A program made the translations under genes and the position numbers. Positions 3,485 to 64,000 of a stretch of 64,000 bases of DNA are shown here, one piece after another. The notes below the pieces were generated by a model that was not told the origin of the DNA, ran no database searches, and saw only the letters and a list, made by a program, of their open reading frames with translations. Positions within the stretch are counted from its first letter, which is position 1; each line of letters opens with the position of its first letter. This DNA comes from Victivallis vadensis. GTDB taxonomy: Bacteria; Verrucomicrobiota; Lentisphaeria; Victivallales; Victivallaceae. Location of the stretch: assembly GCF_003096415.1 (NCBI RefSeq), contig NZ_QEKH01000030.1, positions 1 through 64,000 on the forward strand, written 5' to 3'.

Positions 3485-3569
3485 TCCGATCCTTTCCCAT
3501 AGAAATTCCCACCTGCTTACTATACTCCGGTCCCAGGCGATATGCAATCCGCAAAATGGCCGTCAATAA

Positions 3570-3661
3570 CTGATAATCAGTACTGTTTATTCAAACAAAT
3601 TAGCTATTTTACGCTTTTTATTGCCATTTTTAGTTGACAATATATGAAACGGAGTTAAATT
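3570..3661 (+). promoter_or_regulatory. Promoter and upstream palindrome of the decarboxylase-secretin cluster
   Basis: TTGACA at 3634-3639 and TAAATT at 3656-3661 are 16 bp apart and form the best promoter candidate in the gap 3485-3877. A perfect palindrome ACTGAT-A-ATCAGT at 3569-3581 lies about 50 bp upstream of the -35 and could bind an activator. About 210 nt of untranslated leader follow, with a strong ribosome site (GGAGGAGTAATT) before the ATG at 3878. Nothing else recognisable lies in the leader. Confidence 0.5.
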
Positions 3662-3877
3662 TAATAATGTATAGAGGAAGAAATTGCAATATCCCTGCAT
3701 GCGGTTGAACCTGGAGAATTCGATCGCGGGCGGATCGGCGGCCATTGACCAAGGAATGTGATGGGCGGCGCCGCAGCATTGCAGGATTTTTCATAGGAGG
3801 CCGCCGACACATACGCCGGGGCCGCAAAAAACAGCGCGCCCGTTTCTGCGCGCAATTGAAATTACGGAGGAGTAATT

Positions 3878-6193
3878 ATGAAGATGTCCAAAAGTGCCTG
3901 GCCTGTGATGATCGTATCGCAGGAGCTGAATCTCGGAAACGACAACGGCGTTCGGCTGCGCGAGATCGCCGCCGAACTCGAACACGTTCAGGAGTGCAAG
4001 GTGATCCCGTCCTTCACTTATGAAGATGCGTGGGAGCTGTTCCTGTCGCGCGCCGACCTCGGCGCGGTGGTTGTGGACTGGGACCTGCCGTTCGACGACG
4101 GCGAGGAGCACATGACCCCCGATGAATTCGTCCACAAAATGCGCGAACGGAACAAGAAAATCCCGATCCTGCTGATGACCGACCGGCTCGAAACCGAGAA
4201 CATCCCCACCGGCGCCCTCGGAGAGATCAACGGATGCCTGTGGAAGAACGCCGACACCGCCGAATTCATCGCCGGACGCATCGAAATCCACCTTGTCGAA
4301 TACATCAAAAGCGTTTTCCCGGTCTTTTTCGGCGAACTGGTCAAATATGCCGAGGAGTACAAATACGCCTGGCACACTCCCGGCCACCTCGGCGGACAGG
4401 GCTTCCTGCGCAGTCCGGCGGGCGTCGCGATGTACAAATTTTTCGGAGAAAACACTTTCCGCGCCGACCTCTCCATTTCCGTGCCGGAGCTCGGTTCGCT
4501 GCTCGACCATGAGGGCGTGGTCGGCGACGCCGAGAGGAATTCGGCGCGGGTTTTCGGCGCCGACCAGACCTATTACGTGCTGAACGGCACTTCCACGGTG
4601 AACCAGATCGTGTGGCGCAGCCAGCTGGTCCGCGACGACATCGCCTTCGTCGACCGCAACTGCCATAAATCGCTGAACTATGCGATGGTAATCACCGAGG
4701 CGCTGCCGGTCTACATGGTTCCGCGGCGCAACCGGCGCGGCATCATCGGTCCGGTGCGGCTCTCCGAATTCAGCCCCGAATCGATCCATGCGAAAATTCA
4801 GGCGAGCAAGCTGATCCCCGACGCACTCAAGACCCATACGGTCAAAATGTCCGCCCTGACCAACTCCACCTACGACGGCGTCTGCTACAACGTGATCAAC
4901 ATCAAAAGCCAGCTCGAGAAATCAGTGGAAAACCTCCACTTCGACGAAGCGTGGTACGCCTACGCCCGGTTCAACCCGATGTACAAAAACCACTACGGCA
5001 TGGCCGACGGCCCGGTGAAGCCGGACGATCCGCCGATCTTCTGTTCGCAGTCCACCCACAAGCTGCTGACCGCGTTCAGTCAGGCGTCGATGCTGCATAT
5101 CAAGGACGGCGGCACCGTGAAAATCAATCCGGACGAATTCAACGAATCCTACATGATGCACGGCTCCACCTCTCCTCAGTACAATATGATCGCCTCCCTC
5201 GACGTCGCGACCCAGATGATGGACGATCAGGGCGAACTCCTGATGCACGACATCATCCGTGAAGCGGTCCAGCTCCGCAAAAAGGTGGCGGAACTCAACC
5301 GCGAATTCAAGGACAAGGGCAGCTGGTTCTTCGACATGTGGCAGCCGCGCATGGTCGAAATCGACGGCAGGAAAGTGCCGTTCGCGGACGCCGACATCGA
5401 CTACCTCGCCTCCCATCAGGAGCCGTGGGTGATGAGCGCCGACAACAACTGGCACGGCTTCGACGACATCGAACCGGACTACGTGATGCTCGACCCGATC
5501 AAGCTGACCATCACCACGCCGGGCATCGACGACGCGGGCGTGATGGCGGACTGGGGCATCCCGGCCTCGATCCTGACCAACTACCTGATCGACCACAATA
5601 TCGTGTGCGAAAAGACCGACTACTACTCCTTCCTGATGCTGAACTCCCTCGGCACCACCCGGGCGAAGCAGGGCACGCTGCTGGCGGAACTGCTGAAATT
5701 CAAGGAGGCGTTCGACGCCAACCTGCCGCTGGCGCAGGTGCTGCCCGAACTGGTGAAGAGCCATCCGGAGCGTTATGCCGGAACCGGCATCAAGGATCAC
5801 TGCGTCGAAATGCACCGCTGGATCAAAGAGCATCAGCTGCTGGACAAGATGCAGGACGCCTTTGAAGTGATTCCGGATCAGGCGCTGAAGCCCGCCGACG
5901 CCTACCACGAAGTCGTGCGCCGCAATGTCGAATACGTGCGGCTCGACAAAATGGGCGGCCGGATTCCGGCGGTGATGATGGTGCCGTATCCGCCGGGCAT
6001 TCCGATCATCATGGGCGGCGAAATCCTGAACGACCGCGCCAGACCGATCCACGACTATCTGCTGGCCCGCCAGGCGTTCGAGAACCATTTCCCGGGCTAC
6101 GAAGGCGACATTCACGGCGTCGAACGCGAGGTCGTGAACGGTAAAACCTGCTTCAAGACCCTCTGCGTGAAGCAGAACCTGATCGAGAAGTAA
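3878..6193 (+). CDS. Orn/Lys/Arg decarboxylase, large inducible type
   Basis: The 771-residue PLP enzyme has the full architecture of biodegradative basic-amino-acid decarboxylases: a response-regulator-like wing domain (about 10-140), the PLP-binding fold I core (about 150-590) and a C-terminal domain (about 610-750). The Schiff-base lysine is in STHKLLTAFSQAS, near residue 395. DRNCHKSLN and LHFDEAWYAYARFNPMY are further conserved blocks. These enzymes consume a cytoplasmic proton per decarboxylation and export the amine through an antiporter. The active-site region differs from the AdiA paralogue at 13161 (QSTHK against THSTHK), so lysine, ornithine or arginine remain possible. The GadC-like gene follows after 63 bp. 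Substrate is not assigned. Confidence 0.92.
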   Translation: MKMSKSAWPVMIVSQELNLGNDNGVRLREIAAELEHVQECKVIPSFTYEDAWELFLSRADLGAVVVDWDLPFDDGEEHMTPDEFVHKMRERNKKIPILLMTDRLETENIPTGALGEINGCLWKNADTAEFIAGRIEIHLVEYIKSVFPVFFGELVKYAEEYKYAWHTPGHLGGQGFLRSPAGVAMYKFFGENTFRADLSISVPELGSLLDHEGVVGDAERNSARVFGADQTYYVLNGTSTVNQIVWRSQLVRDDIAFVDRNCHKSLNYAMVITEALPVYMVPRRNRRGIIGPVRLSEFSPESIHAKIQASKLIPDALKTHTVKMSALTNSTYDGVCYNVINIKSQLEKSVENLHFDEAWYAYARFNPMYKNHYGMADGPVKPDDPPIFCSQSTHKLLTAFSQASMLHIKDGGTVKINPDEFNESYMMHGSTSPQYNMIASLDVATQMMDDQGELLMHDIIREAVQLRKKVAELNREFKDKGSWFFDMWQPRMVEIDGRKVPFADADIDYLASHQEPWVMSADNNWHGFDDIEPDYVMLDPIKLTITTPGIDDAGVMADWGIPASILTNYLIDHNIVCEKTDYYSFLMLNSLGTTRAKQGTLLAELLKFKEAFDANLPLAQVLPELVKSHPERYAGTGIKDHCVEMHRWIKEHQLLDKMQDAFEVIPDQALKPADAYHEVVRRNVEYVRLDKMGGRIPAVMMVPYPPGIPIIMGGEILNDRARPIHDYLLARQAFENHFPGYEGDIHGVEREVVNGKTCFKTLCVKQNLIEK

Positions 6194-6225: not shown

Positions 6226-6256
6226 GCCGGCTCCAATCCAAACCATGAGGTGCAAT

Positions 6257-7702
6257 ATGTCGGAATCAACCAAATCACAAGCTCCGGCCAGACGGGCCGC
6301 CGGCCTGAGCGTCTTCACCATGACGATGCTGACCGTGGCCGCCGTGCTGTCGCTGCGCAATCTGCCGTCCCAGGCGGAATACGGTTACAGCATCATCTTT
6401 TACATCACTGCCGCCGCGATCTGCTTCTTCGTGCCGTCGGCTCTGGTATCGGCCGAACTCGCTTCGGCCTACCCCGAAGACGGCGGCGTCTACCTGTGGG
6501 TGAAACAGGCGTTCGGCCCCCGCTGGGGCTTCGTCGCGATTTTCATGCAGTGGGTGGAAAACCTGCCGTGGTTCCCGGCGGTGCTGACCTTCGTCGCGTC
6601 GTCGATCGCGTATGTGTTCAACCCGGCGCTGGCGACCAACCGCTGGTTCGTCTTCGGCACGATCATCGTGACGCTGTGGTTCGCCACCTGGATCAACTTC
6701 AAGGGCATGAAACTGTCGAGCTTCCTGAGCAGCTCGGGGGCGCTGCTCGGCACCGTGATCCCCGGAATCCTGATCATCCTGATGGTGGTCGGCTACCTTG
6801 TCGCCGGCAAACCCGCGCAGATCAGCTTCAGCTGGGGATCGCTGGTGCCGGACCTCGGCAACCTGAACCAGCTGATGCTGCTCTCCGGCATGATGGTCGC
6901 CCTCTCCGGCATGGAGATGTCGGCGGTGCACGTGACCGAAATGGCCAATCCGGGGCGCCAGTTCCCGAAAGCGATCTTCTCGGCCTGCTTCCTGGTGATC
7001 CTGCTGAGCGTATTCGGCGCTCTGGCGATCGCGCTGGTAATCCCGCCGAACGACATCAGCCTCGCGGCCGGAGCGGATCAGGCGTTCGCGAAAATCTTTG
7101 AAATCTTCCATATCTCGTGGATGACCCCCATCATGTGCTTTTTGCTCGCCTACGGCGCGCTGACCATGGTGATCACATGGGTGCTCGGCCCCTCCAAGGG
7201 TGTGCTCGAAGTGGCCAAAGAAGGGTATCTGCCGCAGTACTGGCAGAAGCGCAACGCGCAGGGCATGCCGACCCGCATCCTGATCCTGCAGGCGTCGCTG
7301 TCGAGCGTGCTGGCGACCACGGTGCTGTTCATGCCGACCATTTCGGGAGCATTCTGGGTGATGTCGGCGCTGACCGCCCAGCTCTACATGGTCATGTATC
7401 TGCTGATGTTCGCGGCGGCGATCCGGCTGCGCTACACCCAGCCGGACAAGGTGCGCCCGTACCGGATTCCCGGCGGCAGGCCCGGCATCTGGATCGTCTC
7501 CGGCATCGCGTTCCTGACGGCGCTGCTGGCGATCGTGGTCGGCTTCATCCCGACCGGCGGAGTCCGCAGCGACGGCGACCTCGCGGATGTGGGATATGTG
7601 CTCTTTTTGTTCTTCGGCATGGTGGTGTTCGTCGGAATGCCGCTGGTTTTCTACCACATCTACGAACAGAAGAAGAAAAAGATGGAAACGGCGGCGAAGT
7701 AA
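6257..7702 (+). CDS. APC-superfamily amino acid antiporter, GadC-like
   Basis: The 481-residue protein has about 12 membrane segments and family blocks matching glutamate:GABA-type antiporters: PEDGGVYLWV, GPRWGF and the VTEMANPGRQFPKA motif after the sixth helix, all close to GadC. It probably exchanges an amino acid for its decarboxylated amine across the inner membrane as partner of the decarboxylase just upstream. The start at 6257 is chosen because GAGGTG lies 4 nt before it; the ATG at 6245 overlaps that ribosome site. The long C-terminal plug seen in E. coli GadC is not obvious here. Substrate pair unknown. Confidence 0.88.
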   Translation: MSESTKSQAPARRAAGLSVFTMTMLTVAAVLSLRNLPSQAEYGYSIIFYITAAAICFFVPSALVSAELASAYPEDGGVYLWVKQAFGPRWGFVAIFMQWVENLPWFPAVLTFVASSIAYVFNPALATNRWFVFGTIIVTLWFATWINFKGMKLSSFLSSSGALLGTVIPGILIILMVVGYLVAGKPAQISFSWGSLVPDLGNLNQLMLLSGMMVALSGMEMSAVHVTEMANPGRQFPKAIFSACFLVILLSVFGALAIALVIPPNDISLAAGADQAFAKIFEIFHISWMTPIMCFLLAYGALTMVITWVLGPSKGVLEVAKEGYLPQYWQKRNAQGMPTRILILQASLSSVLATTVLFMPTISGAFWVMSALTAQLYMVMYLLMFAAAIRLRYTQPDKVRPYRIPGGRPGIWIVSGIAFLTALLAIVVGFIPTGGVRSDGDLADVGYVLFLFFGMVVFVGMPLVFYHIYEQKKKKMETAAK

Positions 7703-9219: not shown

Positions 9220-10944
9220 ATGAAAAAATCTCTGTTATACGCAACGATGGCGGCCGCCGCGCTCTGCCCCGCCGCCGAAATTCCCGGCGTTCCGCGCGAT
9301 TCCAATTTCAACAACACCGGCGGCTACGACAGCACCCGGGTTGAAGCCCAGCTGCTGGTCGCGGTCAAGGAGGACACCAAGGTGGTCCATTTCATCCGCG
9401 ACAACGCAGACCCGCGGGTCATCACCAAGACCTATGAACTCAAGCATGTCGATCCCTACGAATTCCGCGACTACCTGCGCCAGATGGTGCAGTCCAAGCG
9501 GGTCGGCAACACCAGCTTGCAGCAGGCGTATCCGGGCAACACCAATGCGACGCCGCCGGTGATGGCGACGGTCAGTTCCCCCGAACTGACCACGCCGCCG
9601 AACGCCCAGCCCAGCTACAATCCGCCGGTCCAGCTCGGCAGCAACACGGCGGTCGAATGCCTGAAATATGTGGACGGCACCGGATTGCTGTTCGTCAGCG
9701 CGGAGGATTACCGCTTCAAGGACCATGAAAACGGCATGGGAATCGATTCGCTGGTCGCGATGCTCGACAGCCCGAAACTCGGCGCGATCAATTACGGTTC
9801 GCAGATGTTTTTCTACCTGCCGAAATTCGTGCCGGCGCGCAACCTGATGCCGCTGATTCAGAACATGGGCATGAACATCTCCGACGTGACCGAACTGTGG
9901 CAGGGGCAGGACGTGGTCGCCTACGATCCCGACCTGAACTGGCTGATCTTCGACGTCAGCAACTACTCCTGCGACAACGTCGCGAAAATGCTCGCGCAGT
10001 ACGATGTGCCGATCCCGCAGGTCCGGCTCAACATCAAGGTCTATGAAGTCTACAGCGAAAACAACGACAAGATGGGCATCGACTTCCAGTCGTGGAAAAA
10101 CAACGAGGGAGCCGACTTCTTCTCGGTCGGAGGCCGTTACCGCAACAACTGGGCCGCGGCCTACAGCGGCGGCATGGCGCGCAGCTTCGGTTCGGAGCGG
10201 ACCAGCTTCTACAACTTCAACCCGAAGTGGAACACCCGTTACCTCGACTTCCTGGCCAGCAAAGGGCGGGCGAAGGTGGTGCATACCGGCGAGCTCTGCG
10301 TGCGCAACAACACCTCGGCCCAGCTTTCGCGCACCACCCAGATTTTCTATATCGACACCTCCAAGCCGGTCAACAACGCGATCATCCCGGGCACGACGCT
10401 CGATCCCTCCGGGAATCCCTTCCCGGATACCGGCGTAGGGCCTTATGAGCTGCTTTCCGGGCTCGCCGGCAAGCTGTTCGACAAGAGCATCGACAAACCC
10501 GGCAAGGACAGCGCGGACCTCAGCTACGGCAAGGGCAACCAGCAGATCACCACCGCCTTCACCGGTTTCGGCTTCACGATGACCGTGAACAACGCGTCGG
10601 TGAACCTTGAGGAGACCCGGTTCAACGTGACGCTGAACAACACCAGCCTGATAGGCTTCGCGTCGAACGGCACTCCGCGCATCTCCAAGGGAAATGCGGT
10701 AACTCAGGATGTCAGCCTCCCCCACGGCAAGGACAGCTTTGTGATCGGCGGGCTGCGCAAGCAGGAGACGGTCAAGTCCAGGACCGGTGTGCCGTGGCTG
10801 ATGGACATCCCCTACCTGGGCTATCTGTTTTCGACCGAATCCAATTCGGTCCGCCACGCCGAACTGATCGTGGTCGGCGAATGCTCGTGGGATTCCCCGA
10901 GCGACAGTTCCGCCGCCGCCCGAAGCACCCGAACCACCTGGTAA
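9220..10944 (+). CDS. Secretin-like outer-membrane protein, copy 2
   Basis: The 574-residue protein has a short signal peptide, a ring-type N domain (VITKTYELKHVDPYEFRDYL), a Pro/Asn/Thr-rich linker (about 100-140), a second N domain, and a secretin domain ending in VPWLMDIPYLGYLFST. It is clearly related to the gene 13 bp upstream but distant from it, so the pair is an old duplication. It also shares a YEV-x-MGID-type segment (IKVYEVYSENNDKMGID) equal to LYEVRESTLRDIGIE in copy 1, where secretin domains begin. The tail after residue 550 is Ser/Arg-rich. The two may build one hetero-oligomeric channel or two alternative channels; the sequence does not decide this. Confidence 0.82.
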   Translation: MKKSLLYATMAAAALCPAAEIPGVPRDSNFNNTGGYDSTRVEAQLLVAVKEDTKVVHFIRDNADPRVITKTYELKHVDPYEFRDYLRQMVQSKRVGNTSLQQAYPGNTNATPPVMATVSSPELTTPPNAQPSYNPPVQLGSNTAVECLKYVDGTGLLFVSAEDYRFKDHENGMGIDSLVAMLDSPKLGAINYGSQMFFYLPKFVPARNLMPLIQNMGMNISDVTELWQGQDVVAYDPDLNWLIFDVSNYSCDNVAKMLAQYDVPIPQVRLNIKVYEVYSENNDKMGIDFQSWKNNEGADFFSVGGRYRNNWAAAYSGGMARSFGSERTSFYNFNPKWNTRYLDFLASKGRAKVVHTGELCVRNNTSAQLSRTTQIFYIDTSKPVNNAIIPGTTLDPSGNPFPDTGVGPYELLSGLAGKLFDKSIDKPGKDSADLSYGKGNQQITTAFTGFGFTMTVNNASVNLEETRFNVTLNNTSLIGFASNGTPRISKGNAVTQDVSLPHGKDSFVIGGLRKQETVKSRTGVPWLMDIPYLGYLFSTESNSVRHAELIVVGECSWDSPSDSSAAARSTRTTW

Positions 10945-13131: not shown

Positions 13132-13160
13132 ATGCAACCCAAAGAATGAGGAGAATTATC

Positions 13161-15446
13161 ATGAAAGACATCGCAATCCGGCAAGTCCTGATCGTCGCCG
13201 ACGAATCCATCGACAACAGCTGCGTGATGAACAAGGCGATCGACGCGCTCGCCGACGAACTCGAAGAGCGCAATCTCCAGGTCACCATCGCCGAATCCTA
13301 TGACGAAGCGCGCCCGATCGTCGCCAACAATATGGACATCGACTGCATCCTGCTGGCGACCGACATGCAGCTCAACCTCGATGAGGAGAACAAGGCCCGC
13401 CAACTGTTTCAGTTGATCCGGCAGCGCCAGTCCAGCGTACCGGTCTTCCTGCTCGCGGACCACGACACCACCAGCGAAGCCATGTCGCCCGAACTGATGG
13501 CGGACGCCAACGAATTCATCTGGATCTTCGAAGACAGCCCGATGTTCATCGCCGGCCGCATCGAAGCCGCGATCGAACGCTTCCGGCAGCAGCTTCTGCC
13601 CCCCCTGATGAAGGCGATCTGGGACTACAACGAGGAGAACCACGAATACTCCTGGGCGGCTCCCGGCCATCAGGGCGGACGCGGTTTCACCAAAAGTCCG
13701 GCGGGCAAGAAGTTCTACGACTTCTACGGCGAGAATTTGTTCCGCACCGACACCGGCATCGAGCGCGCCAGCATCGGTTCGCTGCTGGACCACTCCGGCG
13801 CGTTCGGCGAATGCGAAAAGAACGCGGCAAAGGTGTTCGGCGCCGACCAGTCCTATTCGGTGGTCGTCGGCACCTCCGGCTCGAACCGCACCATCATGCA
13901 GGCGGCCCTGACTCCCGGCGACATCGCGATCTGCGACCGCAACTGCCACAAGTCGATCGAACAGGGGCTGATCCTCTCCGGCGCGGTTCCGGTCTACATG
14001 CTGCCGACCCGCAACCGGTACGGCATCATCGGGCCGATCCTGCGCTCCGAAATGACCGCCGCCGCGATCAAAACCAAGGTCGCCAAAGTCAAGCTGCCGC
14101 ACAACGACGAGGCGATGCCTCCGTATTCGGTGGTCACGAACTGCACCTACGACGGGCTTTGCTACAATTCGGCCAAGGTCGAAGCCGAACTGGACCATTC
14201 CGCCGACCGCATCCACCTCGACGAGGCGTGGTACGGCTACGCGCGGTTCAACCCGATGTACGAGGACCATTTCGCGATGCGCGGCGATCCGAAGGACCAC
14301 AAGGGAGCGACCGTATTCGCGACCCACTCGACCCACAAGCTGCTGAACGCGCTGTCGCAGGCCTCCTTCATCCACATGCGCCAGGGACGCAAGCCGATCA
14401 ATTTCGACCGGATGAATCAGGCGTACATGCTGCACGCGACCACGTCGCCGCTGTACGCGATCTGCGCGTCGAACGACATCTCGGTCAAGATGATGGGCGA
14501 ATCCGGCGAATCCCTGACGCAGGAGGTGATCGACGAGGCGATCGACTTCCGGCAGGCGATGGCGCGGCTCTACCGCGACTTCACCAAGAAAGGCAGCTGG
14601 TTCTTCAAGCCGTGGAATGCGGAAAAGGTCACCAGCAGCCAGACCGGCAAGACCTACGACTTCGCCGACGCCCCGCACAAGCTGCTGGCGCACGACCAGA
14701 ACTGCTGGCGGCTCGCCCCCGGCGACAACTGGCACGGCTTCAAGGATCTGGAGGACAACTGGGTGATGCTCGACCCGATCAAGGTCAGCATCCTCGGCCC
14801 CGGCATGGGCGACGACGGCAGGATGCTCGACTCAGGCGTGCCGGCGCAGCTGGTTTCGGCGTACATCTATCAGGAAGGCATCGTGCCGACCCGGACCACC
14901 GACTTCCAGCTGATGTTCCTGTTCTCGATGGGCATCACCAAGGGGAAATGGTGCACCCTGATCAACAGCCTGCTGAAATTCAAGGAGTTCTACGACCGGA
15001 ACGCGCCGGTGGCGGAAGTGCTGCCGCAACTGGCGAAGGACCATCCGGAATTCTACGGCAATATCGGAATCAAGGATTTGAGCGACAAGATGTTCCAGTA
15101 CCTGAAGGAGAACACGCCGGGCGCCCGCCTCGACGCGGCCTTCAGTTCGCTGCCGGAACAGGCGATGACGCCGCGCGACGCCTACATGGAAATCGTCCGC
15201 GACAACATCGAACTGGTCCCGAGCGACAAGCTCGCGAACCGCGTTGCGGCGAATTCGATCATCCCGTATCCCCCGGGGATTCCGATGATGATGTCCGGCG
15301 AACGGTTCGGCGGCGACGACAGCCCGCAGATCGGCTATCTGCACGCTCTCGAAGCGTGGGACAGGCAGTTCCCCGGATTTGAACACGTCACGGAGGGCAG
15401 TGACGCGATTGACGGCATCTACCATGTGATGTGCGTCAAGGAATAG
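13161..15446 (+). CDS. adiA: Biodegradative arginine decarboxylase AdiA-type
   Basis: The 761-residue PLP enzyme matches E. coli AdiA along its length: ATHSTHKLLNALSQAS with the PLP lysine near residue 393, YMLHATTSPLYAICASND, and the C-terminal NSIIPYPPGIPMMMSGE and HVMCVKE ending. It converts arginine to agmatine plus CO2, consuming a proton, in acid resistance. Domains are wing (10-135), PLP core (about 150-580) and C-terminal (600-750). The start at 13161 is chosen because GAGGAG lies just before it; the ATG at 13146 overlaps that ribosome site. It is the last gene before a strong terminator. It is a paralogue of the decarboxylase at 3878. Confidence 0.95.
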   Translation: MKDIAIRQVLIVADESIDNSCVMNKAIDALADELEERNLQVTIAESYDEARPIVANNMDIDCILLATDMQLNLDEENKARQLFQLIRQRQSSVPVFLLADHDTTSEAMSPELMADANEFIWIFEDSPMFIAGRIEAAIERFRQQLLPPLMKAIWDYNEENHEYSWAAPGHQGGRGFTKSPAGKKFYDFYGENLFRTDTGIERASIGSLLDHSGAFGECEKNAAKVFGADQSYSVVVGTSGSNRTIMQAALTPGDIAICDRNCHKSIEQGLILSGAVPVYMLPTRNRYGIIGPILRSEMTAAAIKTKVAKVKLPHNDEAMPPYSVVTNCTYDGLCYNSAKVEAELDHSADRIHLDEAWYGYARFNPMYEDHFAMRGDPKDHKGATVFATHSTHKLLNALSQASFIHMRQGRKPINFDRMNQAYMLHATTSPLYAICASNDISVKMMGESGESLTQEVIDEAIDFRQAMARLYRDFTKKGSWFFKPWNAEKVTSSQTGKTYDFADAPHKLLAHDQNCWRLAPGDNWHGFKDLEDNWVMLDPIKVSILGPGMGDDGRMLDSGVPAQLVSAYIYQEGIVPTRTTDFQLMFLFSMGITKGKWCTLINSLLKFKEFYDRNAPVAEVLPQLAKDHPEFYGNIGIKDLSDKMFQYLKENTPGARLDAAFSSLPEQAMTPRDAYMEIVRDNIELVPSDKLANRVAANSIIPYPPGIPMMMSGERFGGDDSPQIGYLHALEAWDRQFPGFEHVTEGSDAIDGIYHVMCVKE

Positions 15447-50309: not shown

Positions 50310-50436
50310 ATGACATCCCCCCGCTCGTGGCCGGTAACGGTACGGCAAGACAGACAGAGCTTACGTATCGTGATACGGTCACGTGCGAACGGCATCAAAC
50401 CGGATAAATAAACATAATTTTGACAAGGAGTCGCAA

Positions 50437-51180
50437 ATGCAATCTGAAAAATCTTCCCGGCACAGTGACATGCCGGACGCTGTATGCAAAAAATTTACGC
50501 TGATCGAGCTGCTCGTGGTGATAGCGATCATCGCGATTCTGGCGGCGATCATGCTGCCCGCACTGAACAAAGCGCGCTCCCGCGCACACGATACCTCCTG
50601 CAAAAGCAATCTGAAACAGCTGGGGAACTATGCCGTCCTTTACGCCGCCGACAACGACGACTATGTCGTGACCCAGATGGGCAACTATGCCTGGGACAAT
50701 ACGGCTTTCACCATGTTTCTCCAACCTTACAGTTCCCCCTGGGAAAACAATATCCCTCCTTCCGGAAGCGCAGTCCGGAAAATCGGTTACTGCCCGGGTG
50801 ACAAGAAACCGGATTTTTACTGTCCCTCGTACGGCACACTTTCCCTGGAGCAATTCATGTATCCGCAGGCCTACCAGACGGGTTGGAGAGCCGAAAAAGA
50901 CAACTACTATTTCGGCAAACTCGGAACGATCGGCAAAGTCGGAAACGTCCGCGCGAATTTCGCGCTGATTGCCGACGATCCGGCTTTGAACAACCATCAG
51001 TCCGGCAATTCAGTCTGGCTGAACTACTGGCGCGTCGACGGCAGCGTCAACGCCTTCCGGGAACATGAGGGAAATTTGCCGTATCCGGCGGATGTGGACC
51101 GGGGATTCTGGTCAAACTTTAGCTGCTATGCAAAGTGCTGGGATAGGATGTCAGGCTTCACGGTACTTTACTGGCTGTAA
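50437..51180 (+). CDS. Prepilin-like protein with type II methylation signal
   Basis: The 247-residue protein carries [17 protein letters not shown] after a 19-residue leader, the prepilin peptidase site and N-terminal hydrophobic helix, then [22 protein letters not shown] as in the large Lentisphaerota/Planctomycetes families that end in an HxxxDG-type head. Here the head includes [19 protein letters not shown]. Such proteins are often encoded beside carbohydrate-active enzymes in this group, as here. GACAAGGAGTCGCAA precedes the ATG. Its 3' end overlaps the convergent kinase gene by 13 bp. Confidence 0.85.
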
Positions 51181-58501: not shown

Positions 58502-59044
58502 TCAGCGGGCGGCGGCTGGACGGGCCAGCTCTTTGCGGAAATTGTTCCAATCGATGCCGCGCAGCAGCACCAGGAGGTTGCCGTAGATTTTCTCATGGTA
58601 GCCGTTTTCGGGGAGGCGCATTTCGGCGATCGCTTTTTCGACCTCCCAGTTCTGGACGGCGATGCGGAAAGCGGCGACCACCGTGCCGGTCCGGTCGCTG
58701 CCGTGCCAGCAGTGGATCAGCAGCGGTTTCGGGGCGTCCCGCACGATGCGGACCGCGTTCAGCAGATCCTTTTCCGTCACGCTGCCGGTGTTGACGCCGC
58801 AGCGGAACTCCTTCAGCTCCAGCCCGCGGATCAGCTTCAGGTCGGAGTGATAGTTGCGCAGATTCAGGATGCTTTTAAAGCCCCGCTTCGCCAGCGCCTC
58901 GAACTCCTTGCGCCCCGGCTGCCCGGAGCGGAATATGCCCAGCTCTTCATCCACCGCCTTGAAGTTGGTCGGATTCGTGCCGTCTCCCGCGGTGGCCCAC
59001 GGCGCGACGATCAGCATCAGCAGAAAATAAAACAGCCGGACCAT
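58502..59044 (-). CDS. Secreted dual-specificity/tyrosine phosphatase
   Basis: The 180-residue protein has a signal peptide (about 1-18) and a small dual-specificity phosphatase fold with the CX5R loop HCWHGSDRTG and the general-acid Asp region before it. GIFRSGQPGRKEFEAL is the usual start of the DSP/PFA-type domain. Acting outside the cytoplasm, it may dephosphorylate a lipid, polysaccharide or inositol phosphate rather than a protein. The start at 59044 follows GGGAGGCTTC. Last gene of the leftward envelope operon. Confidence 0.82.
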   Translation of the reverse strand: MVRLFYFLLMLIVAPWATAGDGTNPTNFKAVDEELGIFRSGQPGRKEFEALAKRGFKSILNLRNYHSDLKLIRGLELKEFRCGVNTGSVTEKDLLNAVRIVRDAPKPLLIHCWHGSDRTGTVVAAFRIAVQNWEVEKAIAEMRLPENGYHEKIYGNLLVLLRGIDWNNFRKELARPAAAR

Positions 59045-59118: not shown

Positions 59119-61590
59119 TCAGAGATCGCCATAGGGGATGAAGAAAACCGCGCCGCCGCTCCTGCCGCCGTCGGTTTCGTGCCGGAACATCCCGGCGCAG
59201 AACGACCACCTGCTGCGCCCCGGCCCCTCCAGCCGGCTGATGAACGGGAAAATCGAATATTCGGTCAATCCGTCCCTGCTTCTCTCGCGGTAAAGCCCGC
59301 CCAGCACGTTCAGGTCGCGGATGTTTTCATCGCCCCGGTCGCGCGCGATCAGCCCCAGCAGCCAGCGGCTCTCAAACTCGCCCTCCTGCCGCGAATAGTT
59401 CCAGAGCAGCCCCAGCAACGCCTTGCCCTCCACCCTTTCCCGCTCCGTGCAGAAGCGGCGCGCCATCTCCTGAAACAGGGCCTGCCGCGCCTTCCAATCC
59501 TCCGGCACCGGCCCTTCCAGGCGCAGCTTTTCCAGCAGCGCGGCAGCTTCCTGCTTCCACGTTTCGTATGCCCCGGCATCTTTTTTCCCGTCGGGCTGTT
59601 CTCTCAGGAGCACCGGCAGCTTTTCCAATGTCTCCCGATCCGCCTCGTCCTTCCAGACCTGTACGCGGGTCGTACTCCGGGAACCGAGCAGCATTCCGGC
59701 CGTATATTTCACCGATTCCAGTTCCACCTCGCTTCCGCCGCCACGCCGATATATATGCTCCGGCAGCGTATAACCACCGCACCGGCGCTCCTCCCTGCGG
59801 CTGAACAACGGCGACGGCAGCACGCCGCCGCCGGGGCGCCGGTTGTCGCTGAACAGCGGCCAGACGCCGAAGCTGTCGCCGTCCTTTTCCAGCAGCGGCC
59901 ACAGGAAATGCCAGTCCCACCCCGGCCGGCTGCTGCGTCGTTTCACACCTCCCACCGGGCCGAGCAGGTTGAACTTGAAATTTTCGCCGTTGTGCCGATA
60001 ATAGTAGAACGGGAAAAGCATGTTTTCATCTCCGACTTTCCAGAACAGCGGCAGTACGCCCCAGTCACTCTTTTCCCACCAGACCGGACCGACCAGCCGG
60101 AAGTCCTGATAACGCCAGCAGAGCGGCAACACTCCGAAAGCTCTGGAACGGCGGTCATCGCCGTACCGCCAGACCACCGGCCCGGCATAATTCCATTCCT
60201 TCGACAGATACGCCAGCGGAAACAGGCCGCCCGATACGGTTTCGCCGTTTTCACGATTCCAATAGACCGGGCCGGCGAGGTTGAAACTCCGCGACAGCCA
60301 CGCCAGCGGAAACACGCCCCATGAACCGTTTTCCGGCTTCCACCAGACCGGACCGGCGAGGTTGAAGCTCCGCGACAGCCACGCCAGCGGGAACAGGCCG
60401 CCCGACTTCATGCCGTCCCCATCCGAACTCCACCACACCGGACCGGCAAGGCCGAAATTCCGCTTTACCCACAGCAGCGGAAATGCCCCCCAGCCGTCCA
60501 CTCCCCGTTCGTCGCGCGACCACCAGGCCGGCCCGCAGTACCCCCATTGCGGCGAAGTGAACATCAACGGGAAAATCCCCCACGACACCGTGCTGCCGTT
60601 CTCCCGGTTCCAATAGACCGGACCGGCAAGGCTGAAATCCCGCAGCAGCCACAGCACCGGGAAGAGTCCGCCACCCTTCACCTTTCCCGCCTCCAATTCC
60701 CACCAGACCGGACCGGCCACGCTCAATTCCGGTTTCAGCCACAGCAGAGGGAATATGCCCCTCGAACTGTTGTCGCCATCCCACCAGACCGGACCGGCGA
60801 TCCCGAAATCCTGCACGATCCACGCCAATGGGAAAACACCCCATGAATTGTTGTCCGGCTTCCACCACACCGGGCCGGCAAGGCTGAAATCCGGCGTGAT
60901 CCACGCCAGCGGAAACACGCCCCACGAACTGTTTTCCGGCTTCCACCACGCCGGGCCGATGTGATTCCACTCCACCGACGAGTGCAGCAGCGGGAAAACG
61001 CCCCACGATTCGGTATTGCCTCCGTAGAGAGTACGATAGAAAAGACCGGCCATCCGAAAGTCGGGAGTATGACACCACACCGGAAACACCCCATAGGCGC
61101 GGGCGCCGTTTTCTCCCGACTTCCACCACACCGGGCCGGCATAGCCGCCGCGCGCGCCGAAGCGCGCCAGCGGGAACACGCCCCAGCTCTCCGGCGACCG
61201 CCAGCCGAGCAGGCAGTAGCCGCCGCCGGGGCCGTGGTGAAACAGCGGCCACATCCCGAAGTTCCGCTCGGTCCAGTAGCCGTTCAGCGCCCAGCCGCTC
61301 CGGTCGTTCCACGCGAAGAGCGGAAACAGCACCGACCGCTCCCGGCCGTCCTGCACGTAAAAGGGGCGCACCGCAAAGCCCTGCGCATCGAAGTCCGCCA
61401 GCGGCCACAGGATCGCCCCGCTGCCGCCCGCGTTGAAGTAGAACGGCCACAGATTCACCGCCTCCTGATCGAAGCTGACCTCAACCTCCTTCGCCAGCGG
61501 CGACACCCGCATCGCCCGTTTGGAAGAAACACACCCGCCCGCCAGCAACGCGACCGCGCCGGCAACCGCCAGAATCCGAAATACTTGCAC
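59119..61590 (-). CDS. Large Trp-rich tandem-repeat lipoprotein, 823 aa
   Basis: A lipoprotein (GTG start at 61590 after GGAGG; the ATG at 61602 overlaps that ribosome site) with lipobox LLAGGC. About 13 imperfect repeats of 27-31 residues run from about 150 to 525, with core GPVWWK...WGVFPLAWL...F.LA. Each carries GP[VA]WW and G[VI]FPL, and adjacent units differ by charged and Asn/Gly residues in the middle. A charged helical C-terminal part (about 560-800) follows. No family recognised. The Trp-rich repeats suggest a beta-solenoid or barrel surface protein. It is co-transcribed with sugar transferases, so an outer-membrane or surface-polysaccharide role is plausible. Confidence 0.85.
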   Translation of the reverse strand: MQVFRILAVAGAVALLAGGCVSSKRAMRVSPLAKEVEVSFDQEAVNLWPFYFNAGGSGAILWPLADFDAQGFAVRPFYVQDGRERSVLFPLFAWNDRSGWALNGYWTERNFGMWPLFHHGPGGGYCLLGWRSPESWGVFPLARFGARGGYAGPVWWKSGENGARAYGVFPVWCHTPDFRMAGLFYRTLYGGNTESWGVFPLLHSSVEWNHIGPAWWKPENSSWGVFPLAWITPDFSLAGPVWWKPDNNSWGVFPLAWIVQDFGIAGPVWWDGDNSSRGIFPLLWLKPELSVAGPVWWELEAGKVKGGGLFPVLWLLRDFSLAGPVYWNRENGSTVSWGIFPLMFTSPQWGYCGPAWWSRDERGVDGWGAFPLLWVKRNFGLAGPVWWSSDGDGMKSGGLFPLAWLSRSFNLAGPVWWKPENGSWGVFPLAWLSRSFNLAGPVYWNRENGETVSGGLFPLAYLSKEWNYAGPVVWRYGDDRRSRAFGVLPLCWRYQDFRLVGPVWWEKSDWGVLPLFWKVGDENMLFPFYYYRHNGENFKFNLLGPVGGVKRRSSRPGWDWHFLWPLLEKDGDSFGVWPLFSDNRRPGGGVLPSPLFSRREERRCGGYTLPEHIYRRGGGSEVELESVKYTAGMLLGSRSTTRVQVWKDEADRETLEKLPVLLREQPDGKKDAGAYETWKQEAAALLEKLRLEGPVPEDWKARQALFQEMARRFCTERERVEGKALLGLLWNYSRQEGEFESRWLLGLIARDRGDENIRDLNVLGGLYRERSRDGLTEYSIFPFISRLEGPGRSRWSFCAGMFRHETDGGRSGGAVFFIPYGDL

Positions 61591-61641
61591 AGGGACCTCC
61601 ATGGTTCAACACGGAATAAGACGGCAATGCGCCGCCGTTTC

Positions 61642-62730
61642 TTAGAGCGACGCGACAAATGAAGAAATTTCGCGCCGGAACCGCTCCGGCGCGAACCGCT
61701 CGGCATTGGCGACCAGCGCCGCCGTATCGAAATTCTGCGCTTCGAACCGCTCGATCGCTTCGCACAGCAGATCGGTTTCGGGCCGGGCGAAGAACAAACC
61801 GGTTCTGCCGTCCACGACCGTTTCGAGCGCACCGCCCTGCCCAAGTGCGATCACCGGAGTACCGGCGGCCTGCGCCTCCAGCGGCACGATCCCGAAATCC
61901 TCGACGCCGGGGAACAGCAGCGCCCGCGCTCGGGCATAAAGACGGCGCAACTCCTGCTGGCCGGGGCGCCCGGCGAATTCGATCCCGTTCCCGGATAGTG
62001 CTTCGAGTTCGGCGCGCATACCGCCGTCCCCGACCAGAATCAGCCGCCGCCCCAGTTTCCGGCAGGCCGCGATCGCCAGATCGGGCCGCTTGTAGGCGAT
62101 CAGCTGGCCGACGAACAAATAGTAATCCTCTTTGGGCGAACCGGCGGCTTCCCGGAAGAAACCGGACTCCACCGGCGGATAGATCACCGTCGACTCCCGG
62201 CCGTAAATCCGCCGGATCCGGTCGGCCACGAAACCGCTGTTCGCGATGAACGCATCCACCGAATCGGCCGACGCCAGATCATAACGCCGCAGATAGTCGC
62301 GGAATATCCGCATCGCCGCCTTTCCGGCCAGGCCGGTCGTGCGGTAGTAATCCTCGTACATGTCCCACAGATAGCGCATCGGCGTATGGCAGTAACAGAC
62401 GTGCAGCGCCTCCTTCGGCTTGCGCACTCCCTTGATCGGGCCGGATTCGCTGCTGACGATCAGCTTGTAGCCGGAGAGGTCCAGCCGCCGGATCGCGACG
62501 GGCATCAGCGGCAGGTACTTCTGGCAGTTCCGCCGGGCGCCGGGCAATCGCCCGATGAAGCTCTCGACGATCCGGTGCGACGAAAAGGGCTCCCCGATCG
62601 CCTCCGGGTTCCATGCGTGGGTGAAGATGTCCGCCTCCGGCCACAGGCGGCAGAATTCGGCCAGCACGTTCTCACCGCCGCGGCGGTTGACCAGCCAGTA
62701 GTGCAGCAGCGCGGTCTTCTGCGGCTCCAT
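61642..62730 (-). CDS. GT4-family glycosyltransferase
   Basis: The 362-residue enzyme has two Rossmann halves; the donor-site half carries YLFVGQLIAYKRPDLAI and EDFGIVPLEAQAAGTPVIA with the E-x7-E motif. It adds a sugar (often mannose or rhamnose) to a growing surface polysaccharide. The start codon overlaps the stop of the sugar transferase upstream by one base, so the two are coupled. Confidence 0.9.
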   Translation of the reverse strand: MEPQKTALLHYWLVNRRGGENVLAEFCRLWPEADIFTHAWNPEAIGEPFSSHRIVESFIGRLPGARRNCQKYLPLMPVAIRRLDLSGYKLIVSSESGPIKGVRKPKEALHVCYCHTPMRYLWDMYEDYYRTTGLAGKAAMRIFRDYLRRYDLASADSVDAFIANSGFVADRIRRIYGRESTVIYPPVESGFFREAAGSPKEDYYLFVGQLIAYKRPDLAIAACRKLGRRLILVGDGGMRAELEALSGNGIEFAGRPGQQELRRLYARARALLFPGVEDFGIVPLEAQAAGTPVIALGQGGALETVVDGRTGLFFARPETDLLCEAIERFEAQNFDTAALVANAERFAPERFRREISSFVASL

Positions 62731-64000
62731 CAGTAGGCCCCCCGGCAGAACAGCACTTCCTTGATCGTCTTCAGAAAGATGAAATAGTCCATCCAGATCG
62801 ACCAGTTCATGATGTAGTTCATATCCAGCGCAACCCGGTTCGGATAGTCCACCTCGCTGCGCCCGGAGACCTGCCACAGCCCGGTGATGCCGGGCTTGAC
62901 CCGCTTGAGCAGTTCATATTTGTCGCCGTAATACTTCACCTCGTCCGCGACGATCGGCCGCGGCCCGATCACCGCCATCTCGCCGGTCAGCACATTCCAG
63001 AACTGCGGCAGCTCGTCGAGGCTGGTCTTGCGCAGGAAACGGCCCAGCGGGGTGATGCGCGGGTCGTTCACCAGCTTGAACTTTTCGCGCCACTCGCGTT
63101 CCAGCTCCGGGTCCTCCGCCAGCAGCTGCTCCAGCCGCTGGTCGGCGTCGGCGTACATGGTGCGGAATTTCAGCACCCGGATCGGCTTGCCGCCGACGCC
63201 GAGCCGGTTCGCCCGGTACAGCATCGGCCCCCGGGAGGTCAGCTTGATCCCCAGCCCGATCACCAGCAGCAGCGGAAACGCCATCACGATCGCCAGCACC
63301 GCGATCACCACTTCCGCCAGCCACTTGCACACGCGCGGCAGGGCCATCAGCAGCTGGTTGCGGATCTCCAGCGCGCTGCACCCGTCCAGATTGACCGGAT
63401 AACTCCACGCGATCGAAAACACTTCGTTCGACGGCACCAGCAGCACGTGCAGGAAATACTCCGAGTACTGCTTCAGCAGCGACTCCATGATATGGAACGG
63501 CACGCAGCAGATCACGTAGGAGACCTGCCGCTCCCGGCCGATCCGGACTCCGTCCGCCAGTTTTCCCAGCACCGGCACTCCGCCGACCTCCGTTCCCTGC
63601 TTGTCGGGATGGTCGTCCACAAACCCCACCGCCCGGAAACCGAAGAACTTGTCGCGGGCGATCCGCTGCACCATCAGCTGCCCGCCCAGCCCGGCCCCGG
63701 CGATCAGCACCGGAATCTGCCCGACTCCCCACCGTTTCATCAGCGAACGGCACCACCACCGGGTCAGCGGCAGCAGCAGGAAGGTCAGCCCCCAGCTCGC
63801 CACCAGCGCCACGCGCGAATACAGCTCCACCTGCCGCGTCAGCGCCAGATAGCCGAAAAGCAGGAGATAGCTCAGACTCACCGACAAAAACACCCGGCGC
63901 AGCTCCTCCACCGGCCCCAGCGCCGCGCCGGGATAGAACGGGTTGCCGTGGTAGAGCCGGATCGCCGCGTTGCAGAGCAGCATCACCGGCACCAGCGGCC
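62730..64000 (-). CDS. Initiating sugar transferase (WbaP/WcaJ type), partial
   Basis: The gene runs off the right end, so its 5' part is missing. The visible 420 or so residues comprise membrane segments, a CoA-binding-like middle with GAGLGGQLMVQRIARD, and the C-terminal bacterial sugar transferase domain: LKFRTMYADADQRLEQL, RKTSLDELPQFWNVL and GEMAVIGPRPIVADEV. It loads the first sugar-1-phosphate on undecaprenyl phosphate for exopolysaccharide or capsule. First visible gene of the leftward operon. Confidence 0.92.
   Translation of the reverse strand, partial: PLVPVMLLCNAAIRLYHGNPFYPGAALGPVEELRRVFLSVSLSYLLLFGYLALTRQVELYSRVALVASWGLTFLLLPLTRWWCRSLMKRWGVGQIPVLIAGAGLGGQLMVQRIARDKFFGFRAVGFVDDHPDKQGTEVGGVPVLGKLADGVRIGRERQVSYVICCVPFHIMESLLKQYSEYFLHVLLVPSNEVFSIAWSYPVNLDGCSALEIRNQLLMALPRVCKWLAEVVIAVLAIVMAFPLLLVIGLGIKLTSRGPMLYRANRLGVGGKPIRVLKFRTMYADADQRLEQLLAEDPELEREWREKFKLVNDPRITPLGRFLRKTSLDELPQFWNVLTGEMAVIGPRPIVADEVKYYGDKYELLKRVKPGITGLWQVSGRSEVDYPNRVALDMNYIMNWSIWMDYFIFLKTIKEVLFCRGAY

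What the first reader, a model, noticed from the sequence alone, without database searches (positions are those of the whole stretch)
59119..61590. Large Trp-rich repeat lipoprotein of unknown family
Thirteen imperfect 27-31-residue units with GP[VA]WW and G[VI]FPL cores form about half of an 823-residue lipoprotein. DNA of neighbouring units is also similar, so copy number may vary. It lies inside a polysaccharide operon. The fold may be a beta-solenoid or a novel barrel with aromatic faces suitable for glycan binding.
Basis: partly seen in the sequence, partly recalled or inferred. Interest (0 to 1): 0.7.

Follow-up and report, generated by a model that had tools for sequence, protein, structure and literature searches.

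The report
Unnamed tryptophan-rich repeat lipoprotein family
This gut bacterium of the genus Victivallis encodes a lipid-anchored envelope protein with 13 tryptophan-rich repeats; it belongs to an unnamed family found across its phylum that is probably a long, extendable protein sheet used as a scaffold, not part of a sugar operon as first thought.

Summary
Window 59119-61590 (-) encodes an 823-aa lipoprotein (GTG start behind a GGAGGT ribosome-binding site) with 13 tandem 27-31-residue GP[VA]WW...G[VI]FPL units. Shuffled sequence never approaches this.

It is one member of a family without a name in Pfam, NCBIfam, PHROGs or the PDB. Hallmarks: a lipobox, a conserved "NxWP...LWPxxDxDxxGxAxRPF" N-terminus, a variable number of proline-centred strands, usually a helical insert, and a conserved C-terminal "FFIPFG" strand. 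It is in 46/67 near-complete genomes of the order and 99/289 sampled across the phylum.

Unit number varies: two close species (93% nt identity) differ by exactly one 84-nt unit. The gene neighbourhood is not conserved, so the "polysaccharide operon" is incidental.

AlphaFold models of two members give the C-terminal domain as an open antiparallel sheet of hairpins, matching CPAP G-box (Z 10.3 and 10.7), MORN arrays and OspA. The repeats themselves model poorly (pLDDT about 30-65).

Best reading: an outer-membrane-anchored, extendable beta-sheet rod with an aromatic-lined face, acting as scaffold, spacer or partner-binding platform. Glycan binding, a lipid groove and a beta-barrel remain possible. 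Architecture is moderately supported; function is inferred.

The parts
59119..61590 (-). 823-aa lipoprotein gene (GTG start; alternative ATG at 61602 gives 827 aa)
   Evidence: ORF; GGAGGT 4 nt before GTG; homologues in 55 of 100 nearest genomes; NG86 dN/dS 0.34 between two close relatives
61531..61590 (-). signal peptide and lipobox LLAGGC, lipidated Cys codon at 61533-61531, followed in the mature protein by VSSKRAMRVSP
   Evidence: lipobox with +2 residue A, V or I (never D) in 32 of 33 members
61153..61455 (-). conserved N-terminal block NLWPFYF...ILWPLADFDAQGFAVRPF...LFPLFAWN...GW...YW...PL
   Evidence: invariant columns of A1: N50 P53 P67 D70 D72 G75 R79 P80 L92 P94 G103 W104 W110 P119 (827-aa numbering)
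60037..61146 (-). array of 13 Trp-rich units of 27-31 aa (GP[VA]WW...WG[VI]FPL), the last truncated
59452..59637 (-). helical insert (three predicted helices) before the C-terminal sheet, pLDDT about 85-96
   Evidence: AlphaFold2 model
59122..59805 (-). C-terminal domain: open antiparallel sheet of hairpins (helical insert included) ending in the conserved strand SGGAVFFIPYG
   Evidence: pLDDT mostly 70-96; CPAP G-box Z 10.3, MORN, OspA, junctophilin; same result from a homologue
61642..62877 (-). neighbour: family 4 glycosyltransferase (not part of a conserved unit)
   Evidence: Pfam; neighbourhood not conserved
61669..61695 (-). terminator-like 12-bp hairpin in the end of the glycosyltransferase gene
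   Evidence: pattern match only; number of such sites in the region is at chance level
58502..59044 (-). neighbour: signal-peptide-bearing tyrosine/dual-specificity-type phosphatase, with its own SD and a promoter-like site in the gap
   Evidence: Pfam

Best explanation
It is a lipid-anchored envelope protein of a phylum-wide, unnamed family. Shown by sequence: lipobox, conserved ends, and a middle of proline-centred strands whose number changes by whole units. Shown by model only: the C-terminal domain is an open, mostly single-layer antiparallel sheet of tight hairpins. Inferred: the WW/FPL units continue the same sheet, so the protein is a rod standing on the outer membrane; about 50 strands would give roughly 200 Angstrom, scaling from 80 Angstrom for 18 strands in MORN1. 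Inferred: the stacked Trp/Phe rows hold together a sheet that lacks a normal core and line a groove or face that binds a partner (protein, peptide or polymer), and unit gain and loss tunes the length. It would work as an extendable scaffold or spacer, as MORN arrays and the CPAP G-box do, without being related to them.
For: Lipobox with no Asp at +2 in 32/33 members, which by the E. coli sorting rule predicts the outer membrane. Conserved N- and C-terminal blocks and a variable middle in proteins of about 430-1390 aa. Close relatives differ by one exact 84-nt unit. Two separately modelled members both give the C-terminal domain as CPAP G-box/MORN/OspA-like (G-box Z 10.3 and 10.7; MORN1 about 9 and OspA about 8-9 with the homologue's model). 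Each strand is about 9 residues, hydrophobic around a central Pro, with aromatics toward the ends and then short charged turns rich in Asp/Asn/Gly/Ser. Solved MORN arrays are elongated twisted sheets with an aromatic-lined groove; their closest DALI match is CPAP G-box, and they bind proteins and form assemblies (PMC7725318).
Against: The repeat region itself has pLDDT of about 30-65, so continuing the same sheet through it is an extrapolation. Positions -2, -1, +1 and +2 around the Pro are all hydrophobic, which is too greasy on both faces for a freely exposed sheet; something must cover it. No partner, localisation or phenotype is known, and no conserved neighbour points to a pathway.
Confidence: 0.42

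Rival explanations
1. Glycan-binding surface lipoprotein: rows of Trp on the repeat face bind polysaccharide (own capsule or dietary glycan).
For: About 11% Trp in the repeat region; glycosyltransferase and sugar-transferase genes just upstream; Victivallis relatives grow on sugars in the gut (general knowledge).
Against: Neighbouring glycan genes are not conserved beside other members; many members have far fewer Trp (2-4%) with Phe, Tyr or Leu instead; no carbohydrate-binding family hit.
Confidence: 0.15
2. Lipid-handling beta-taco: the proline line bends the long sheet into a hydrophobic trough that shields lipid or LPS between membranes, as LptA/LptC/LptD or AsmA-type proteins do.
For: Foldseek's best E-values are to LptD (3e-5) and VIA-align gives Z 9.2 to LptD for residues 151-303; hydrophobic on both faces at the centre of each strand.
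Against: That region has pLDDT of about 45-65 and the whole-chain TM is only 0.13; the family was not found in about a third of near-complete genomes of the order, odd for an essential lipid bridge.
Confidence: 0.13
3. Lipidated outer-membrane beta-barrel: each unit is a transmembrane hairpin with aromatic girdles, closed by the conserved C-terminal strand.
For: Strand length near 9-10, aromatics near both turns, charged turns; the C-terminal SGHIFF resembles a beta-signal (by eye).
Against: A Pro in the middle of most strands; no inside/outside alternation; unit number varies freely; both turns are short.
Confidence: 0.1
4. Beta-solenoid with one unit per coil and stacked Trp ladders.
For: Near-constant unit length with 3-residue insertions at one turn.
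Against: The model shows an antiparallel meander in the better parts of the repeats and hairpins in the C-terminal domain; no solenoid among the leading fold matches.
Confidence: 0.1

Closest known systems
MORN repeat arrays (e.g. Trypanosoma, Toxoplasma and Plasmodium MORN1; junctophilin; radial-spoke proteins)
   Same: Tandem hairpin repeats in one elongated open antiparallel sheet with aromatics and glycines at fixed places; fold match Z about 8-9 for the C-terminal domain
   Different: No MORN profile hit; unit is 27-31 residues with GP[VA]WW/FPL, not the 23-residue YxGEW/GxG; lipidated and exported
CPAP/SAS-4 TCP10 (G-box) domain
   Same: Best structural match of the C-terminal domain in two separate models (Z 10.3, 10.7)
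   Different: Eukaryotic centriole protein; sequence identity about 10% or less; no Pfam hit
OspA of Borrelia
   Same: Exported lipoprotein with a single-layer antiparallel sheet (Z about 8-9)
   Different: No sequence similarity, not a tandem Trp repeat, different ends
NCBIfam NF047486, LA_1737 family (named after a Leptospira protein)
   Same: 7 of 33 members match weakly in strand-rich regions (best 34.7 bits, E 1.6e-8)
   Different: All below the 60-bit cut-off; the window protein itself does not match
LptD/LptA/LptC beta-taco and jelly-roll
   Same: Low-confidence fold match of repeat residues of about 150-303
   Different: No sequence link, lipoprotein anchor, not found in all genomes

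Membership tests
bacterial lipoprotein | signal peptide with lipobox and +1 Cys | tested here: met
   LLAGGC in the window; lipobox in 32 of 33 members (the remaining one was trimmed to an internal Met)
MORN repeat protein | MORN profile match | tested here: not met
   no Pfam MORN hit in 33 members at E 0.1
MORN repeat protein | 23-residue unit with YxGEW and GxG | tested here: not met
   units are 27-31 residues, GP[VA]WW...G[VI]FPL; MORN definition from PMC7725318
MORN repeat protein | open antiparallel hairpin sheet | tested here: inconclusive
   C-terminal domain matches MORN1, radial-spoke proteins and junctophilin at Z 8-9; repeat region modelled poorly
CPAP TCP10/G-box domain | profile match | tested here: not met
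   no Pfam hit; fold resemblance only
OspA lipoprotein | sequence homology | tested here: not met
   no Pfam or PDB sequence hit; fold resemblance of the C-terminal domain only
NCBIfam LA_1737 family | score at or above the 60-bit cut-off | tested here: not met
   best 34.7 bits in a relative; none in the window protein or its genome
Lpt beta-taco lipid carriers | fold match to LptA/C/D | tested here: inconclusive
   Z up to 9.2, but on residues with pLDDT of about 45-65
outer-membrane beta-barrel | alternating in/out hydrophobic pattern in strands | tested here: not met
   the four positions flanking the central Pro are all 80-100% hydrophobic
outer-membrane beta-barrel | membrane insertion | not testable with these tools
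   needs fractionation
beta-solenoid | parallel stacked coils | tested here: inconclusive
   models are antiparallel but of low confidence in the repeats
carbohydrate-binding module | match to a known CBM family | tested here: not met
   no Pfam hit; a new binding family is not excluded

The most novel reading that the evidence does not exclude
A new class of lipid-anchored beta-trough proteins in this phylum, whose proline-kinked Trp-rich sheet carries or shields lipid across the periplasm, with length set by repeat number.
Probability: 0.08. Interest if true: 0.8.

Novelty: new variant of a known kind. Interest (0 to 1): 0.45.

Why it matters
A large, widespread lipoprotein family of a phylum common in animal guts has no name, no domain model and no assigned fold. 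If the model is right it is an exported bacterial parallel to MORN and G-box sheets, and an example of an envelope protein whose length changes by whole-unit gain and loss. It gives a concrete target for structure work and for a new Pfam family.

Tried and rejected
Sequence searches of Pfam, NCBIfam, PHROGs and PDB gave nothing usable. Operon reading: rejected, neighbours not conserved. Paralogues in the own genome: none by protein, family profile or unit profile. The first genome-contig scan with the single protein found nothing; the profile scan found 54 loci. A guess that LIC12048 is LA_1737 was wrong: PMC2387172 lists LIC12048 against LA1762 and LA1764, so that literature was dropped. The viral fold library gave no convincing match. 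Papers on Victivallis lipoproteins or Trp-rich repeat lipoproteins: nothing relevant. No solenoid family appeared among the leading fold matches; this absence proves nothing.

Full report
Observation. The minus-strand ORF 59119-61602 gives 827 aa. Residue numbers below use the 827-aa form. The lipobox is LLAGGC. Thirteen units begin at residues 156, 186, 216, 243, 270, 297, 327, 357, 387, 417, 444, 474 and 505, with spacings of 27, 30 or 31. The 3-residue difference falls in the turn after the WW strand. The motif counts (12 and 13) exceed every one of 2000 shuffles (maxima 1 and 2). Unit DNA identity is mostly 60-80%, up to 86%.

Family. No usable hit in Pfam, NCBIfam, PHROGs or PDB sequences. 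By protein search 55 of the 100 nearest genomes have a relative. A profile of 33 members finds 46 of 67 near-complete genomes of the order and 99 of 289 in the phylum. Named records are uncultured Victivallis, other Lentisphaeria and Victivallales, the isolate Lentisphaerae bacterium WC36, one Opitutales MAG and one short contig labelled Planctomycetota. Members share the lipobox followed by [AVI][STV][SG]xR, the NxWP / LWPxxDxDxxGxAxRPF / LFPLxxWN N-terminal block, and the C-terminal FPFI...SF.WR....SGHIFFIPFG end. In far members the same plan is kept with strands such as WLLPLYYHDDEVTLVTPLFG. A Leptospira-named NCBIfam domain, LA_1737, is matched below cut-off by 7 of 33 members. It is a lead, not a membership.

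Variation of units. Unit counts by a strict pattern are 12 in the window, 6, 5, 4 and 3 in relatives, and none in many. Units are closest to units of the same protein in the window (11 of 12), L031, L035 and L056, which points to amplification within each lineage. Genes of two close species (L045, L046; 92.9% nt identity over aligned bases) differ by one exact 84-nt, 28-residue unit in the repeat region. Their NG86 dN/dS is 0.34.

Surroundings. Upstream on the same strand are a family-4 glycosyltransferase and a bacterial sugar transferase; downstream is an exported phosphatase. The first two have no counterpart within five genes of the other members examined, and the phosphatase has one, five genes away. 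A terminator-like hairpin lies at the glycosyltransferase end and a promoter-like site before the phosphatase; both are pattern matches only. The polysaccharide operon therefore does not explain the protein.

Structure. Two AlphaFold2 jobs were run: the window protein with 33 sequences (mean pLDDT 55.6, C-terminal residues 600-827 mostly 70-96) and a 433-aa homologue with 18 sequences (mean 46.0, C-terminal part up to 85). In both, the C-terminal domain is a row of hairpins; in the window protein these have DG/PG/GG turns and are joined at FPF, CAGM or LGGL kinks. Structural alignment ranks CPAP TCP10/G-box first in both (Z 10.3, 133 residues, rmsd 5.8; Z 10.7, 109 residues, rmsd 6.3), with MORN1, radial-spoke MORN proteins, junctophilin and OspA among the next matches. 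These are open antiparallel sheets. MORN1 itself is closest to CPAP G-box in DALI, and MORN arrays have an aromatic-lined groove that binds protein in MORN4 (PMC7725318). Residues 149-303 of the repeats resemble LptD and LptA, but with pLDDT of about 45-65. The middle of the array is effectively unmodelled.

Strand profile. Around the central Pro, positions -2 to +2 are 80-100% hydrophobic, aromatics rise at -4/-3 and at +2 to +4, and charged or turn residues dominate from 5 to 9 on each side. This argues against a classical transmembrane barrel (no alternation, Pro in mid-strand). It also argues against a freely exposed sheet, so a covered face (dimer, partner, lipid or polymer) is expected.

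Mechanism. The preferred account is an outer-membrane-anchored, extendable sheet acting as a scaffold or partner-binding platform. Anchor, domain plan and unit variation are shown by sequence. The C-terminal fold is modelled. The rod shape through the repeats, outer-membrane placement, length and scaffold role are inferred. Glycan binding, lipid handling, a barrel and a solenoid are kept as rivals.

Verdict. A real, unnamed, widespread family; the fold class is probably known, the sequence family is new, and the function is open.

Noticed in passing
L034:1318-3270 and 3490-5769: Two family members sit in tandem on one contig of a Victivallales MAG (G067), which looks like a gene duplication.
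   Followed up: partly
window 3878-6193 and 13146-15446: Two full-length Orn/Lys/Arg decarboxylase genes in one window, one followed by an amino-acid permease gene (6245-7702).
   Followed up: no
window 9220-10944 and 50383-51180: A secretin-domain protein and a gene with a prokaryotic N-methylation (pseudopilin-like) signal; adjacent secretion genes were not looked for.
   Followed up: no
L045:7125-8897 versus L046:7262-9100: Genes of close species differ by one exact 84-nt repeat unit; a second cluster of small differences lies after the repeats.
   Followed up: yes
window 61153-61455 (N-terminal block): An invariant DxDxxG turn between two strands in all 33 aligned members; an Asp-rich turn that could bind a metal ion. 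Not tested.
   Followed up: no
L124:3244-4293: Start of a family member on a short contig labelled Planctomycetota; either wider spread or a misbinned contig.
   Followed up: no
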